Source of the DNA: Actinomycetota bacterium
GTDB lineage: Bacteria; Actinomycetota; Nitriliruptoria; Nitriliruptorales; Nitriliruptoraceae
Length of the DNA: 36,526 nucleotides
Assembly (NCBI GenBank): GCA_019348135.1
Contig: JAHWJY010000017.1
Span: forward strand, 1 to 36,526
Direction: 5' to 3'
Shown here: in pieces, positions 741 through 36,526 of the stretch
How positions within the stretch are numbered: position 1 is the stretch's first letter
Layout of the letters: every line of letters begins with the position of its first letter
Notes under the pieces: generated by a model
Database searches by the model: none
The model's input: only the letters and a program-made list of their open reading frames with translations
What the model was told of the DNA's origin: nothing
Program-made: the position numbers and the translations under genes

Positions 741-2461
741 GCGCAGCCGCCCCCGGCGAGGTCGCGTTCGTCCTCCACACGCACCTGCCGTACCTCAAGC
801 ACCACGGGGTCTGGCCCGTCGGTGAGGAGTGGCTGTTCCAGGCCTGGGCCGGGTCGTGGCTGCCGGTGACGCGGCTGCTGCTGCGCCTCGCCGACGACGG
901 CCACCGCGACGTGCTGACGCTGGGCGTGACCCCGATGGTCGCCGCGCAGGTCGCCGACGACCGACTGGCCGACGAGCTCGGGACGTGGGTGGGCGGGCAG
1001 ATGTGGCGCGCCGAGGAGCAGCGCTGGCAGGGCTGGCACGCCGGCGAGGAGGTCGCGGCACTCGCGACCTTCTACTGGCGTTCCTACGCCGAGGTGCTCG
1101 CGACCCACGAGGAGGTGCAGGCGGCGGGCGGCCTGCTCGCCGTGTGGCGCGACCTCGCCCGGCGCGGGGTCATCGAGCTCCTCGGCGGCCCCGCGACGCA
1201 CCCGTACCTGCCCCTGCAGACCGACCCCGCCCTGATCGACGCGCAGCTCGCCTGCGGGCTGGACGCCCACGCGGCCTGGGCCGGCGAGCGGCCCCGCGGG
1301 ATGTGGGCGCCGGAGTGCGGCTACCGGCCGGCCGGACCCGTGGCGGACGCCACGGCGGAGCCGCTGCGGGTCGACCGTCACGGCACGCCCTCCCTGCCGC
1401 GCACCGGACCGTCGCTGCCCGGGTTGGAGGAGGCCTACGCCCGGGCGGGCGTGGGTCACTTCCTGGTGGACGCCGCCACGCTGGTGCAGGCGGCGGGTGG
1501 CGCCGAACGGGACTGGACGCAGAGGCCGGCCGTGCCCGACCCCGCGGCCGGCGACCCGTACGAGGTCGTGCACGACGGTGTGCTGGTCGGCGACTCCGAC
1601 GTGGTCGCGTTCGCCCGGGACCTCTCCGTCGCCTACCGGGTGTGGTCGCCGACGACCGGGTACCCCGGCGACCCCTGGTACCGGGACTACTTCGCCCGGG
1701 GCGACTGGGGCCTGCACCCGTCGTGGCGTGTCACGGACCACGAGCTCGGCCCGATGGACAAGGCGGTCTACGAGCCCGCGCGGGCGGCGGCCCGCGTCGA
1801 CGAGCACGTCGACGACCTCCTGGGCGTGCTCCACGAGGTCCTCGGTCCGCGCCCCGGCGACCTCGTCGTCGCCGCCTACGACACCGAGCTCTTCGGGCAC
1901 TGGTGGTTCGAGGGCGTGGCCTGGCTCGAGGCGCTCCTCCGTCGCGTCGCCGCGGACCCGCAGCTGCGCACGACCACGCTCGCGTCGCGGGTCGACCGTC
2001 GCCCGCCGACGCGCCGGCTGGACCTGCCCGAGTCGTCGTGGGGGTACGCGAAGGGACACGCCAGCTGGGTCACGCCCGAGACGCGCCCGATGTGGGTCGA
2101 CCTCCGGCGGGCCGAGGACCGCGCCCGGGAGGCGCTGTCCGCCACCGCGGCCGGCGGCCCGCGGCTCGCGCCGGCGCGGGAGCAGCTGGCGCGCGAGCTG
2201 GCGCTGCTCACCGCGAGCGACTGGCCGTTCATGGTCACCCGCGGCAACTCGTCCGGCTACGCCTTCGAGCGCTTCGCGGGCCATCTCGACGCGGTCGAGC
2301 GGCTCGCCGGCGCGCTGCTGACGGACGATCCGGTGCGCGACGCCCTCGTGGCCGAGCTCGGCGTCCGCGACGACGCACCGGCCGACCCCGGCGCCTTCGT
2401 CGCCGCCCTGTCGGGGGCGACGCCGGGGAGGTCCCACGCTCAGTCCTCGATGCGGACCTGA
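737..2461 (+). CDS. GH57 glucan branching enzyme with DUF1957 domain (Rv3031-like)
   Basis: Predicted alpha-1,4-glucan 6-glucosyltransferase of family GH57, 574 residues, cytoplasmic. The GTG at 737 overlaps the methyltransferase TGA by four bases and puts the first conserved block (HTHLPY, residues 14-19) near the N-terminus; an upstream GTG in this frame would overlap the methyltransferase deeply. In the Thermus and Thermococcus branching enzymes the nucleophile is the Glu in block 3 and the acid/base the Asp in block 4. Here these are E193 in MWAPECGY and D382 in YDTELFGHWW, so the enzyme should be active. The C-terminal helical DUF1957 part includes SDWPFMVTRGNSSGYAFERF. Coupling to the methyltransferase and the nearby GT4 gene matches the Rv3030-Rv3032 arrangement. 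The 3' end overlaps the convergent next gene by 22 bases. A related 4-alpha-glucanotransferase activity cannot be excluded. Confidence 0.88.
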   Translation: MSAAAPGEVAFVLHTHLPYLKHHGVWPVGEEWLFQAWAGSWLPVTRLLLRLADDGHRDVLTLGVTPMVAAQVADDRLADELGTWVGGQMWRAEEQRWQGWHAGEEVAALATFYWRSYAEVLATHEEVQAAGGLLAVWRDLARRGVIELLGGPATHPYLPLQTDPALIDAQLACGLDAHAAWAGERPRGMWAPECGYRPAGPVADATAEPLRVDRHGTPSLPRTGPSLPGLEEAYARAGVGHFLVDAATLVQAAGGAERDWTQRPAVPDPAAGDPYEVVHDGVLVGDSDVVAFARDLSVAYRVWSPTTGYPGDPWYRDYFARGDWGLHPSWRVTDHELGPMDKAVYEPARAAARVDEHVDDLLGVLHEVLGPRPGDLVVAAYDTELFGHWWFEGVAWLEALLRRVAADPQLRTTTLASRVDRRPPTRRLDLPESSWGYAKGHASWVTPETRPMWVDLRRAEDRAREALSATAAGGPRLAPAREQLARELALLTASDWPFMVTRGNSSGYAFERFAGHLDAVERLAGALLTDDPVRDALVAELGVRDDAPADPGAFVAALSGATPGRSHAQSSMRT

Positions 2462-2802
2462 CGCGCGGAGCCTCCGGCGAACGGCGCCACGGTGAGCGAG
2501 CTCGCCGGGATGGTCACCGTCCCCCCGCCCTTGAGGTGCCGAACCGCGGCACCGTCCGGCCGGAACGACACCGGGTGGACCTCGATGTCCCCGCCGGAGG
2601 GGTGGCGCAGCCGGAGCGACGCCGGCAGCTCGTCCTGCACGACCGCGAACCCGCGCGACACGAGCAACCGCAGCACGGAGTCGGCGCCGTCGGCCTCGGC
2701 CATGAGCGCGAAGGCGTCCGGCTGGTCGGGGTAGGTGACCCACGCCACGACCCCTCGCGCCTCGAGCAGCCCGAGGAGGTCGAGCACATCGGCTTCGGTC
2801 AA
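2440..2802 (-). CDS. degenerate LnuA/ANT(2'')-like nucleotidyltransferase-fold protein
   Basis: Small protein of about 120 residues. The overall pattern follows the lincosamide/aminoglycoside nucleotidyltransferase fold: an N-terminal helix (TEADVLDLLGLLEARGV), a strand with W, a helix ending in LLVSRGFAVVQDELP, then LRLRHPSGGDIEVHPVSF. In active relatives the segment after the W carries a GGWGVD-like motif and a DLDLV metal-binding strand; here it is replaced by a short TYPDQPDAFALM stretch, and the usual VDLHPV reads IEVHPV. Catalysis looks lost. I chose the TTG at 2802 because AAGGGAG lies six bases upstream; a GTG at 2859 would give 19 more residues but has no comparable site and crowds the divergent PBP promoter. 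The 3' end overlaps the GH57 gene. The role is unknown. Confidence 0.6.
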   Translation of the reverse strand: MTEADVLDLLGLLEARGVVAWVTYPDQPDAFALMAEADGADSVLRLLVSRGFAVVQDELPASLRLRHPSGGDIEVHPVSFRPDGAAVRHLKGGGTVTIPASSLTVAPFAGGSARQVRIED

Positions 2803-2869
2803 GACTCGCTCCCTTCGGTCCCCGCAGCGTAGAGCGGACGGCGGGGCATCCGGCGGCACCGGCGCGCCC

Positions 2870-2875
2870 TACCCT
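2870..2875 (+). promoter_or_regulatory. candidate leaderless -10 element of the PBP gene
   Basis: TACCCT fits the actinobacterial TANNNT -10 consensus and ends six bases before the ATG at 2882, so transcription would begin at or next to the start codon. No Shine-Dalgarno sequence is visible before that ATG. No clear -35 box was found. Confidence 0.4.
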
Positions 2876-2881
2876 CCCCGC

Positions 2882-5077
2882 ATGCGATCGTTCCTGAAGC
2901 GCGTCGTGGTGGTCGGCACGTCCGCGGTGTTGTCGGTGACCGCCCTCGTCGCCCTCTTCGCCTGGCTGGCGCTCACCATCGAGTGGCGCGTGCCCGATCC
3001 CGGCGCGCTCTCGGGCCCGACCGAGCTCCAGGCACGGGACGGGACCGTCATCGCCCGCTTCACCTCCGAGGTCGACCGCCGCATCATCCCGTTCGACGCG
3101 ATGAGCGAGCACGTCGTCGCGGCCGTCGTCGCCAACGAGGACCAGCGCTTCTACGAGCACGACGGGGTGGACCCGCTGTCGCTCCTCCGCGCGATCGTGA
3201 TGAACGTCCGCACCGGCGGCATCGCCCAGGGCGGGTCCACGCTCACCCAGCAGTACGTCAAGAACGCCTTCGTGGGAGCGGACCGCACCTTCCTCCGGAA
3301 GATGCGGGAGGCCGTGATCTCGATCCAGCTCGAGCGTGACCTCGCGAAGGAGGAGATCCTCGAGCGCTACCTCAACACGGTCTACTTCGGCGAGGGCGCC
3401 TACGGGGTCGAGGCGGCGGCGCTGACGTTCTTCGGGACGCCCGCGGCGGAGCTCGACCTCGCCCGGGGTGCCCTGCTGGCCCAGGCCCTGCCGGCTCCCT
3501 CCGCCCGCAACCCCCGGGTCGACCCCTCCGGCGCGGACGCCCGTGCCGATGCGGTGATCCGGAAGATGCAGGCGCTCGGCACCGTGAGTGCGGACGAGGC
3601 CGCCGCGGCCATGGCGCAGGACGTCGAGATCCTCCCGCGCCAACGCGAGGTCTTCGAGGCGCCGTACTTCGTCGAGTACGTCCGCAAGCAGCTCGAGCAG
3701 GCGTACGGCCGGCAGGCCGTCATGACCGGAGCGCTGACGGTGCGGACCACGATCAGCCTGCCGGCGCAGCGGCACCTCGACGAGGCGGTGGCGAACCAGC
3801 TCCTGTCGAAGGATCCCGGCGACATCCGCGCGGGCGGCGTCGCGATCGACCCCCGCACGGGCGACATCCTCGCCATCCACGGCGGACCGGACTTCGCCAC
3901 GCAGCCGCTGGACCTCGCGACCCAGACCCGGCGCCAGAACGGCTCGACCTTCAAGCCGATCGCGTTCGTCGCGGCGCTGGAGGAGGGCGTCGACCCGGAC
4001 ACGACCTACCCGTCGCCGGGGCGGACGACCGTCACCGCGGAGAACTGCGAGGCCTACGACGGCGAGCCGTACGACGTGGGGGGCGGACCCGGTGGTCGGT
4101 TGCCGCTCCGCGAGGGCCTGACGCGGTCGGTGAACACGGTGTTCATCCGGGTGGGCTGCGAGCTCGGCCCGCAGCGGATCATCGACCAGGGCCTCCGGAT
4201 GGGTATCCGCAACCGCATCGACCCGTTCGTCTCCGTCGCCCTCGGGGGCTCGAGCAACGGAGGCTCGGTCCTGGACATGGCCTCCGCGTTCGGGACCCTG
4301 GCGAACGACGGCGTCTACTGCGCCGCGCGGTCGATCATCTCGGTCACCGGCCCCGACGGTGGGGCCATGCCGACGCCGCGCGAGGTGACGATCGTGCCCC
4401 GGATGGAGCCGCGCCCCCGGTCGCTCACGCAGGTCGAGCTCGACGCCCGGCCCGAGGGGCTGGCGGAGCGCGACGGCGACGGCTGCGTCGGTGCCGTGGA
4501 CGCCGACATCGCCCGGACGACGACCCTGGCGCTGGAGCAGGTCGTCGCGCGCACCACGGGACAGCGGGCCCAGATCGGCCGCCCGCAGGCCGGCAAGACG
4601 GGGACGACGAACGAGGAGCGGGACGCCTGGTTCGTGGGCTACACGCCGGAGCTGTCGATGGCCGTGTGGGTCGGCGACCCCGGGACCCCGGTGCCGATGC
4701 GCGACGTCGCCGGCTTCGCGCGCGTGCAGGGCGGCACGATCCCGGCCCTGATCTGGAAGGACGCCGCCGAGGACATCCTCGCCGACGTCCCACCGACCGA
4801 CTTCCTCGCCCCCGGCGAGCTGGACCCGTCCGACGACGTCGCCCGCCCCGCTCCGGCGCGGGACCGCGAGCGCGAGGCGACACCGACGGAGGAACCCACC
4901 GACATCCCCTCCGAGGACACCGGCGGGAGCACCGAGCCCGACGACGAACCCACCGACGGCGACGACCCGGGCGGCGGGGACGACCCCGGCGGCGGGGACG
5001 ACCCCGGCGGCGGGGACGACCCCGGCGGTGGGGACGATGACGACGACGGCTGCATCATCGTGATCGGCGACTGCTAG
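2882..5077 (+). CDS. class A penicillin-binding protein (bifunctional transglycosylase/transpeptidase)
   Basis: Peptidoglycan glycosyltransferase and DD-transpeptidase, 731 residues, anchored in the membrane by one segment at about residues 6-30. The GT51 domain shows EDQRFYEHDG (catalytic E86), GGSTLTQQ, RKMREA and EILERYLNTVYFG. The transpeptidase domain shows GSTFKP (S355 nucleophile, K358), SVN and KTGTT (K572). All expected active-site residues are present. The start is the ATG at 2882, directly before the membrane segment. The C-terminal tail is low complexity: a Pro/Glu/Thr/Asp-rich stretch, four perfect DDPGGG units, a run of Asp and a terminal CIIVIGDC. The gene interrupts the glucan cluster and is convergent with the inactive protease-like gene. 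Similar to mycobacterial PonA-type enzymes. Confidence 0.95.
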   Translation: MRSFLKRVVVVGTSAVLSVTALVALFAWLALTIEWRVPDPGALSGPTELQARDGTVIARFTSEVDRRIIPFDAMSEHVVAAVVANEDQRFYEHDGVDPLSLLRAIVMNVRTGGIAQGGSTLTQQYVKNAFVGADRTFLRKMREAVISIQLERDLAKEEILERYLNTVYFGEGAYGVEAAALTFFGTPAAELDLARGALLAQALPAPSARNPRVDPSGADARADAVIRKMQALGTVSADEAAAAMAQDVEILPRQREVFEAPYFVEYVRKQLEQAYGRQAVMTGALTVRTTISLPAQRHLDEAVANQLLSKDPGDIRAGGVAIDPRTGDILAIHGGPDFATQPLDLATQTRRQNGSTFKPIAFVAALEEGVDPDTTYPSPGRTTVTAENCEAYDGEPYDVGGGPGGRLPLREGLTRSVNTVFIRVGCELGPQRIIDQGLRMGIRNRIDPFVSVALGGSSNGGSVLDMASAFGTLANDGVYCAARSIISVTGPDGGAMPTPREVTIVPRMEPRPRSLTQVELDARPEGLAERDGDGCVGAVDADIARTTTLALEQVVARTTGQRAQIGRPQAGKTGTTNEERDAWFVGYTPELSMAVWVGDPGTPVPMRDVAGFARVQGGTIPALIWKDAAEDILADVPPTDFLAPGELDPSDDVARPAPARDREREATPTEEPTDIPSEDTGGSTEPDDEPTDGDDPGGGDDPGGGDDPGGGDDPGGGDDDDDGCIIVIGDC
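4961..5032 (+). repeat. 18-bp coding repeat, four copies (DDPGGG)
   Basis: Four consecutive 18-base units in the PBP frame encode DDPGGG, with only third-position differences between copies (gggcggc, cggcggc, cggcggt). They form a flexible acidic Gly-rich segment directly before the last 14 residues of the protein. Confidence 0.9.
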
Positions 5078-33306: not shown

Positions 33307-34128
33307 GTGACCGAACCCGACGGTCGCGACCGCGTGCCCATGTCCGCTGCCGCGGTGGGCGGCGGGCTCGTGGCGGGCACGGCCGCCGGGCTCTTCGGCG
33401 TCGGCGGCGGCGTGCTGCTCGTCCCCCTGCTCGTGCTCGTGCTCAAGCGCAGCCAGCACGTCGCCCACGCGACGTCGCTGGTCGCCATCACCCTGGCCGC
33501 GGTCGCCGGCGCCGGACGCTTCGCGCTCGACGGCTCGGTCGCCTGGGCGGGAGGTCTCGCGGTGGCCGCGGGCGCCGTCGTCGGCGCCCGCTTCGGGGCG
33601 CGGTTCCTCCCGAAGGTCTCGGAGGGCGGGCTCCGGCGGCTCTTCGCCGGCGTGCTGCTCCTCCTCGCGCTGCGCTTCCTCCTGGTCGGGGCGACCGGGG
33701 AGGCGGCGGTCGCGGGGAACGTGACGCCGGCTCTGGACCCGCTCGTCGTGGCGCTGCACGTGGTCGGCGGCCTCGCCGCCGGCGTGACGTCCGCGGTCCT
33801 CGGCGTCGGCGGCGGGATCATCATGGTGCCGCTGCTCGTCCTCGGGTTCGGCTACGGGCAGCACGTCGCGGAGGGTACGTCGCTGGCCGTCATCATCCCC
33901 ACGGCGGTGACCGGCGCGTGGGCCCATCACCGCAACGGCTACACCGACTGGCCGCTGGGCATCCAGCTCGGGTCGGCGAGCGTCCTCGGGAGCATCGCCG
34001 GCGCATCGCTCGCCCTGTCCCTCGATCCCGTCACCCTCGGCCGGCTCTACGGTGGCCTCCAGCTCGCGGTCGGTCTGCTGATGCTGCGACGCACACCGGA
34101 CGCTCCCGAGACGGAGGAGCCGACATGA
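33307..34128 (+). CDS. TauE/SafE family membrane transporter
   Basis: Predicted permease of the TauE/SafE (DUF81) family, 273 residues, with about eight membrane segments. The internal duplication of the family is clear: GLFGVGGGVLLVPLLVLVL near residue 30 and AVLGVGGGIIMVPLLVLGF near 170, each followed by a HATSLV- or EGTSLAV-type segment. Members export or import small sulfur-containing or organic anions; the substrate here is unknown. The GTG at 33307 has GAGGAG eight bases upstream. Its TGA overlaps the ATG of the next gene by four bases, so it is translated together with the MogA/MoaB protein. That partner might point to molybdenum or sulfur metabolism, but this is weak evidence. Confidence 0.88.
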   Translation: MTEPDGRDRVPMSAAAVGGGLVAGTAAGLFGVGGGVLLVPLLVLVLKRSQHVAHATSLVAITLAAVAGAGRFALDGSVAWAGGLAVAAGAVVGARFGARFLPKVSEGGLRRLFAGVLLLLALRFLLVGATGEAAVAGNVTPALDPLVVALHVVGGLAAGVTSAVLGVGGGIIMVPLLVLGFGYGQHVAEGTSLAVIIPTAVTGAWAHHRNGYTDWPLGIQLGSASVLGSIAGASLALSLDPVTLGRLYGGLQLAVGLLMLRRTPDAPETEEPT

Positions 34129-34619
34129 CCCGACGGACCGCCGCGGTCGTGACCGCGAGCGACGGCACGGCGGCCGGCACCCGGGAGGACACCTCGGGCC
34201 CGGCCGTCTCGGCGCTCCTCGAGGAGGCCGGCTTCGCGATCGTCGCGCGCGAGGTCGTGCCCGACGACCTCGAGGCGATCGCGGCCGTCCTCTGCCGGCT
34301 CACCGACGACGGGGTCGCCCTCGTCTGCGTCACCGGCGGCACGGGGCTCGGCCCCCGGGACGTCACGCCCGAGGCGACCCGCGCCGTGATCGACCGCGAG
34401 GTCCCGGGCCTGGCGGAGGCGATGCGCGCCGCCGGCCGCGCGTCGACCCCGATGGCGGACCTGTCGCGCGGGATCGTGGGCCTGCGTGGCGCGACCCTGA
34501 TCGTGGACCTCCCCGGCTCGCCCCGCGGCGCCACCGAGTCGCTCGCCGCCATCCTCGAGGTCCTCCCCCACGCGCTGGACCTCGCCGCCGGCGACACCGC
34601 CCACCACCCGCCGGCGTAG
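34125..34619 (+). CDS. MogA/MoaB family molybdopterin-binding protein
   Basis: Molybdenum cofactor biosynthesis protein, 164 residues. In this family MogA adenylylates molybdopterin; MoaB is closely related and often does the same job in actinobacteria. It shows the MoCF fold marks: AAVVTASDGTAAG, the motif CVTGGTGLGPRDVTPEATR, and LPGSPRGATESL near the C-terminus. The ATG at 34125 has GGAGGAG five bases upstream and overlaps the permease stop. No other moa or moe genes lie in the window. The gene ends beside a repeat element facing the convergent carbamate kinase gene. Confidence 0.9.
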   Translation: MTRRTAAVVTASDGTAAGTREDTSGPAVSALLEEAGFAIVAREVVPDDLEAIAAVLCRLTDDGVALVCVTGGTGLGPRDVTPEATRAVIDREVPGLAEAMRAAGRASTPMADLSRGIVGLRGATLIVDLPGSPRGATESLAAILEVLPHALDLAAGDTAHHPPA

Positions 34620-34646
34620 CGCGCGCCGACGCGCGTCCGGGACCGG

Positions 34647-34728
34647 ACCGTGAGCGACCCGCCGACCGTGAGCAGGCCGTCCCCGGATGCGGGGATGCAC
34701 TGCTCACGGTGAGGAAGGTGCTCACGGT
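34647..34728. repeat. four-copy ACCGTGAGC element with two-fold symmetry
   Basis: ACCGTGAGC occurs at 34647-34655 and 34665-34673, and its complement GCTCACGGT at 34702-34710 and 34720-34728. Each pair has an 18-base period and the pairs face each other. The inner copies extend to 11-bp arms (34665-34675, 34700-34710). Between them a small hairpin, CCCCG-GATG-CGGGG, lies at 34681-34694. It lies between convergent genes, so it may be a bidirectional terminator or a REP/BIME-like mobile repeat. Confidence 0.65.
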
Positions 34729-34766
34729 GGCGGCCGCGCCGCACGACGGGAGCGAGGGCCGCGCGG

Positions 34767-36526
<1,760 letters not shown>

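What the first reader, a model, noticed from the sequence alone, without database searches (positions are those of the whole stretch)
34620..34766. Symmetric four-copy ACCGTGAGC element between convergent genes
Two direct copies 18 bases apart face two inverted copies 18 bases apart, with a small CCCCG/CGGGG hairpin in the middle. The equal spacing of both pairs is more ordered than a simple terminator and looks like a REP/BIME-type unit, a multi-site binding region or a bidirectional terminator.
Basis: seen in the sequence. Interest (0 to 1): 0.6.

Follow-up and report, generated by a model that had tools for sequence, protein, structure and literature searches.

The report
Mobile palindrome with a Vsr-fold nuclease
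The four-copy ACCGTGAGC element is one of about a dozen scattered copies of a roughly 110-base palindrome, and it belongs to a widespread, apparently undescribed class of REP-like repeats in Actinomycetota in which each repeat family has its own DNA-cutting (AbiEi-Vsr type) gene, carried as an insertable unit between two copies of the repeat.

Summary
It is not unique. The window's assembly has 12 copies (2 degenerate), its only held congener 15; 59 other relatives none. All are intergenic; 13 of 27 lie between convergent genes. No RAYT gene (PF01797) was found. In the congener, two pairs of copies bracket homologous ~325-aa genes (AbiEi-like part plus Vsr/DUF559/MTES_1575 nuclease part); nucleotide homology runs exactly from core to core, and in three relatives the same flanking genes abut without the unit. 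This generalises across Actinomycetota: 49 of 76 testable genes of this family have matching flanking repeats, each of its own sequence; 19 such palindromes hit 121 sites in their own genomes and 2 elsewhere; a second unit is absent from the same gap in 18 congeners. It is organised like REP/RAYT but with an unrelated enzyme. How it spreads (nicking of the extruded palindrome, or homing-type repair) is inferred and untested. The window copy is a gene-less solo; its cognate nuclease was not found in the 72%-complete assembly. No prior description was found in the searchable open literature.

The parts
34647..34728 (.). Whole four-arm palindromic element (solo copy)
34665..34710 (.). 46-bp conserved core: 11-bp inverted arms, N24, with central hairpin
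   Evidence: fixed length in 25 of 27 copies
34647..34655 (+). Outer left arm ACCGTGAGC
34665..34675 (+). Inner left arm ACCGTGAGCAG
34681..34694 (.). Central hairpin CCCCG-GATG-CGGGG; its fourth pair co-varies between genomes (C:G to A:T)
34700..34710 (-). Inner right arm CTGCTCACGGT
34720..34728 (-). Outer right arm GCTCACGGT
34631..34639 (+). Degenerate third (outermost) left arm GCGCGTCCG against consensus GCGCGTTCC, 2 mismatches, at the consensus position
34125..34619 (+). Left neighbour gene, MoCF_biosynth (PF00994), convergent; host gene, not part of the element
34767..35702 (-). Right neighbour gene, amino-acid kinase family (PF00696), probably carbamate kinase, convergent; host gene, not part of the element

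Best explanation
The element is a solo copy of a REP-like dispersed palindrome whose gene-bearing form is palindrome - AbiEi/Vsr-type nuclease gene - palindrome. Proposed mechanism: the AbiEi-like N-terminal part recognises the inverted (and 18-bp repeated) arms of its own palindrome, and the C-terminal Vsr-fold endonuclease nicks or cuts there, most likely when the palindrome is extruded as an imperfect hairpin in single-stranded or supercoiled DNA. Strand transfer or recombinational repair then copies the palindrome, with or without the gene, to new intergenic sites. Shown by sequence: dispersal, pairing of each gene with its own palindrome, specificity of each pairing, presence/absence of units and of palindromes at orthologous loci, conserved nuclease residues. 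Inferred: binding, cutting, the transposition or homing chemistry, and that the nuclease rather than a host process spreads the palindromes.
For: 27 dispersed copies in two congeneric genomes and no element in 59 other relatives. Two congener loci are element-gene-element, 74% identical at nucleotide level from core to core. Nuclease family: 49 of 76 testable genes have a flanking repeat pair at E<1e-3, 41 at E<1e-6, 30 with both direct and inverted matches, against 6 of 150 mismatched flank pairs and 25 of 112 random segments at E<1e-3, none of either with both. 19 gene-flanking palindromes hit 121 sites in their own genomes and 2 elsewhere, both between the two congeners. Empty sites: the L046 unit's two flanking genes are 74-95 bp apart in three relatives; the L142 unit is absent from the same gap in 18 congeners, two of which carry a related-looking solo palindrome there. 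Domains: AbiEi in 71/71 (PADLOC), PF13338 in 53/71; MTES_1575 in 53/71, DUF559 in 41/71; PDB matches 3hrl, 3r3p (mobile intron protein) and, weakly, Vsr; two Asp invariant, Glu and His over 90%. Characterised AbiEi binds 11-bp arms separated by N27 (PMC3985639); this core has 11-bp arms and N24. All 47 copies checked are intergenic.
Against: No cognate nuclease for this palindrome was found in the window's own assembly (72% complete). 27 of 76 family genes lack a detectable repeat pair. No experiment exists. The structure model failed (pLDDT 35), so the Vsr fold rests on sequence profiles. Palindrome covariation fits dimer binding as well as hairpin formation. How a Vsr-fold enzyme would move DNA is not known.
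Confidence: 0.62

Rival explanations
1. Pure homing version: the nuclease cuts solo palindromes (or uninserted alleles), and break repair using the flanking palindromes as homology arms copies the gene in. Palindromes are primarily homing sites; their own dispersal is due to something else.
For: PDB profile matches include 3r3p, deposited as a mobile intron protein; the unit is a gene between two copies of one site; units sit in gaps that in other species are empty or carry a solo palindrome.
Against: Does not by itself explain how solo palindromes reach many unrelated intergenic sites.
Confidence: 0.2
2. Operator plus terminator: the upstream palindrome is an AbiEi-type autoregulatory operator, the downstream one a terminator, and solo copies are bidirectional terminators or binding sites of the same repressor.
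For: AbiEi represses its own promoter through inverted repeats (PMC3985639); 24 of 47 copies lie between convergent genes; strong RNA hairpin.
Against: No T-tract or terminator-like site; solo copies also lie between divergent or co-directional genes; the downstream copy matches the upstream one, and the complete unit is absent at the same locus in relatives.
Confidence: 0.09
3. Ordinary REP/BIME or MITE moved by a Y1 transposase or a DDE insertion sequence elsewhere in the genome.
For: Palindromic, dispersed, intergenic, multicopy.
Against: No PF01797 match in either genome although the same search found it in 5 of 14 control genomes; each palindrome tracks a specific AbiEi-Vsr gene. DDE elements were not searched for.
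Confidence: 0.03
4. Defence or repair locus: the nuclease is a defence or mismatch-repair enzyme and the palindromes are its regulatory or self-marking sites, kept by selection and not by mobility.
For: Vsr and AbiEi are known from repair and phage defence; PADLOC AbiEi models match every member.
Against: The gene stands alone between its palindromes in L046 and L050; palindrome sequences differ between paralogues in one genome; units are present or absent at orthologous loci.
Confidence: 0.06

Closest known systems
REP/REPIN elements with RAYT transposases (REPtrons)
   Same: Dispersed intergenic palindromes; the enzyme gene is flanked by its own palindrome; different palindrome for each enzyme; several systems possible per genome (PMC3116915, PMC3733652).
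   Different: Enzyme is AbiEi-Vsr-fold and not Y1/HUH; no GTAG tag in the consensus; palindromes of about 50-115 bp; two homologous units occur in one genome here, whereas RAYTs are reported as single copies.
Vsr-fold mobile-intron (homing) endonucleases, e.g. PDB 3r3p
   Same: Nuclease domain related by profile; presence/absence at orthologous sites.
   Different: No intron or intein seen; flanked by palindromes that also occur alone at many sites; carries an AbiEi-like part.
AbiEi antitoxin of type IV toxin-antitoxin systems
   Same: Related N-terminal part; characterised AbiEi binds 11-bp inverted repeats with N27 spacing (PMC3985639), against 11 bp and N24 here.
   Different: Joined to a nuclease domain; sites dispersed, and downstream of the gene as well as upstream.
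MTES_1575 / DUF559 REase domains
   Same: Nuclease domain family (PF18741, PF04480).
   Different: MTES_1575 was described as a domain of a large multi-domain protein (PMC3710099); no dispersed cognate palindrome was found described.
CGTC-tagged REPs and ERIC/NEMIS-type palindromes
   Same: Short intergenic palindromes; CGTC REPs are reported to lack a dedicated transposase (PMC3733652).
   Different: Here a candidate mobiliser gene is identified; no CGTC tag.

Membership tests
REP/RAYT (REPtron) | Y1 (HUH) tyrosine transposase gene associated with the palindrome | tested here: not met
   PF01797: 0 of 2 genomes, control found in 5 of 14; both genomes are incomplete drafts
REP/RAYT (REPtron) | GTAG (or CGTC) tetranucleotide at one end of the palindrome | tested here: not met
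   Symmetrised consensus of 25 copies has neither tag at the ends of the core
REP/RAYT (REPtron) | Dispersed, extragenic, palindromic, multicopy | tested here: met
REP/RAYT (REPtron) | Enzyme gene flanked by its own palindrome family | tested here: met
   Met, but with an unrelated enzyme
AbiEi-Vsr nuclease palindrome units (class proposed here) | Gene with AbiEi-like plus MTES_1575/DUF559 parts between two copies of the palindrome | tested here: met
   L046 and L050 for the window's palindrome; the window itself holds no such gene
AbiEi-Vsr nuclease palindrome units (class proposed here) | Same palindrome dispersed without the gene in that genome and not in unrelated ones | tested here: met
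   (121 against 2) for other members; for the window's family
AbiEi-Vsr nuclease palindrome units (class proposed here) | Unit present/absent at orthologous loci | tested here: met
   L142; L046, the window's family
AbiEi-Vsr nuclease palindrome units (class proposed here) | Nuclease binds and cuts the palindrome | not testable with these tools
   Needs biochemistry
MITE / insertion sequence | Terminal inverted repeats with target-site duplication | tested here: inconclusive
   Junctions at the L142 locus show absence of the unit but no clear duplication
Intrinsic terminator | Hairpin followed by a T-tract | tested here: not met
Known RNA family (Rfam) | Match above gathering score | tested here: not met
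   Only a sub-threshold microRNA-precursor match, 28.4 against 77.5 bits

The most novel reading that the evidence does not exclude
A second, independently evolved REP/RAYT-like class of bacterial mobile DNA: AbiEi-Vsr-fold nucleases that recognise and spread their own dispersed palindromes throughout Actinomycetota, possibly using mismatches of the extruded hairpin as the cutting signal.
Probability: 0.5. Interest if true: 0.92.

Novelty: categorically new. Interest (0 to 1): 0.84.

Why it matters
REP-type palindromes are known to be associated with HUH (RAYT) transposases. A separate, phylum-wide class paired with an unrelated, Vsr-type nuclease would give a function to a large group of genes annotated only as 'DUF559' or 'type IV toxin-antitoxin AbiEi family', explain families of intergenic palindromes in actinobacteria, and offer many natural nuclease/target pairs for studying how sequence-specific nucleases and their sites evolve together. 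The question of how palindromic repeats without a RAYT spread becomes directly testable. Functional analogues (REP/RAYT, homing endonucleases) exist; 'categorically new' refers to the unrelated enzyme and to finding no description in the open literature held here, which lacks most subscription journals.

Tried and rejected
RAYT/Y1 transposase: none in either genome. Intrinsic terminator with T-tract: none. Rfam RNA: only a sub-threshold microRNA-type match caused by the hairpin. Single-sequence structure prediction: pLDDT 35, discarded, no fold search made. Viral-contig search with the 71-row alignment: not run because no stretch was conserved enough. Synteny of the window copy in the congener: the two neighbour genes were found on separate contigs with no element beside either, so an empty site for the window copy itself could not be shown. 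Correlation of palindrome similarity with protein similarity: only the 71%-identical pair clearly shares its palindrome, so palindromes diverge faster than proteins and no deeper co-evolution test was possible. Literature: nine searches found no report linking Vsr/DUF559/AbiEi-type nucleases to dispersed palindromes.

Full report
OBSERVATION. The four-copy structure is exactly as described. Coordinates tighten to 34647-34728; the 147-bp gap lies between a MoCF_biosynth gene and an amino-acid-kinase gene (probably carbamate kinase) that converge. The inner arms are 11 bp (ACCGTGAGCAG-N24-CTGCTCACGGT), and a third outer arm (GCGCGTTCC / GGAACGCGC) 34 bp outside the core is visible in many other copies but degenerate here.

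NOT UNIQUE. By inspection there are 12 copies in the window's assembly (10 clear, 2 degenerate) and 15 in G001. The 46-bp core has a fixed length in 25 of 27 copies and 95% paired cells with five co-varying pairs; the shuffle control is exceeded, but a palindrome bound by a dimer would covary in the same way. Four copies are at the same place in both genomes. At two of these sites the fourth central pair differs as C:G against A:T, and the A-type centre occurs in 8 of 15 G001 copies and none of the 10 aligned G000 copies, so the copies appear to evolve in concert or to follow a shift in specificity (inference).

LOCATION. All 27 copies are intergenic and 13 lie between convergent genes, against 2 of 51 element-free gaps of at least 60 bp in the same loci; 4 lie between divergent genes. 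Gene calls are from a home-made codon-usage finder, so orientations are approximate. Twenty solo copies of two other palindrome families, in genomes G172 and G150, are also all intergenic: 11 convergent, 8 co-directional, 1 divergent.

THE PARTNER GENE. In G001 two pairs of copies are about 1.1 kb apart. Between each pair is a ~325-aa gene; the two proteins are 71-72% identical and the nucleotide match runs from the first core to the second and stops there. Members of this family (71 aligned) match AbiEi models (71/71 in PADLOC; PF13338 in 53) and MTES_1575/DUF559 nuclease models (53 and 41); PDB profile matches are an endonuclease-like protein (3hrl), a mobile intron protein (3r3p) and, weakly, Vsr. 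MTES_1575 is described as a Vsr-fold REase (PMC3710099). Two aspartates are invariant and further Glu, Asp and His positions over 90% conserved. The window has no such gene and no copy of the cognate one was found in the 72%-complete assembly; its best relative there (C225) has its own, different palindrome.

A GENERAL SYSTEM. I collected 105 family ORFs from relatives and from 199 genomes drawn across the phylum. In 76 testable loci, left and right flanks share a repeat at E<1e-3 in 49 and at E<1e-6 in 41; 30 have both direct and inverted matches, meaning that the repeat is palindromic. Mismatched flank pairs gave 6 of 150 and random segments 25 of 112 at the looser cut-off, none with both. 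The palindromes have inverted arms of 8-14 bp with 16-38 bp between them. Nineteen of them, joined into one query against eight genomes, hit 121 sites in their own genomes and 2 elsewhere, the 2 being between the window genome and its congener (the hit list was cut, so counts are minimal; a few families showed only the copies beside the gene). A named example is Tsukamurella tyrosinosolvens plasmid NZ_LR134454.1, gene EL451_RS09515 (DUF559), flanked by a 93%-identical inverted pair.

MOBILITY. The two genes that flank the L046 unit of the window's own palindrome family lie 74-95 bp apart in three family relatives (G003, G007, G012), with no unit between them; a fourth (G002) has an unrelated 1-kb insert there. 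For a second unit (L142, genome G130), 25 further genomes of its genus were searched: 18 could be read across the site and lack the unit, with as little as 10-30 bp between the flanks in several; G252 has a whole unit at the same place and G248 at least part of one; G258 and G259 have a lone, related-looking palindrome there, and three others a different palindrome-like stretch. Units and solo palindromes are therefore gained or lost independently.

MECHANISM. A characterised AbiEi binds an 11-bp inverted repeat with 27 bp between the arms (PMC3985639); this core has 11 bp and 24 bp. I therefore infer that the AbiEi-like part recognises the palindrome and the Vsr-fold part cuts it. Vsr enzymes cut beside mismatches (general knowledge), and many of these palindromes have mismatched steps within their stems, so an extruded imperfect hairpin is a plausible substrate. 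This is a hypothesis; homing by break repair is the main rival, and the two can coexist. None of it has been tested in the laboratory.

COMPARISON AND NOVELTY. By organisation it works like REP/RAYT (PMC3116915, PMC3733652). It is not a member: no Y1 enzyme, no GTAG/CGTC tag. Nine searches of the open literature found no description of a Vsr/DUF559/AbiEi-type nuclease with dispersed palindromes; subscription journals and preprints were largely out of reach, so prior description cannot be excluded.

VERDICT. The window holds a solo copy, but it opens onto what looks like a new, phylum-wide class of nuclease-associated mobile palindromes.

Noticed in passing
L046 (G001:C253) 2953-4123 and L050 (G001:C351) 1990-3167: Two homologous complete units (palindrome, nuclease gene, palindrome) in one genome, one bracketed by CCCA-centred palindromes and the other by CCCC-centred ones, matching two sub-groups of solo copies.
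   Followed up: partly
L209 (G002:C36), between the genes that flank the L046 unit in G001: A different ~1-kb insert at the same intergenic site, without a nuclease match and without a clear flanking repeat pair: the site may be an insertion hot spot.
   Followed up: partly
L100 and L103 (genomes G035, G021), downstream of the nuclease gene: Tandem arrays of several palindrome copies next to the nuclease gene, so these repeats can also expand in tandem.
   Followed up: no
L186, L191, L195, L199 (genus of G130), same intergenic gap as the L142 unit: Other palindrome-like stretches of different sequence occupy the same gap in other species; L199 has a long stem (GCGAACAGACGCGAAAGCCCCC...).
   Followed up: no
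L029 (G023:C1 about 3152782-3153003): A tandem array of 18-base GCTCACGGTCACCGCCAC units, with no palindrome, matches the pair pattern but is unrelated to the element.
   Followed up: no
L085 (G000:C225) 1264-2196: Nuclease relative in the window's own genome with about 15 sites of a different palindrome; the search reported one TGA inside the matched stretch.
   Followed up: partly
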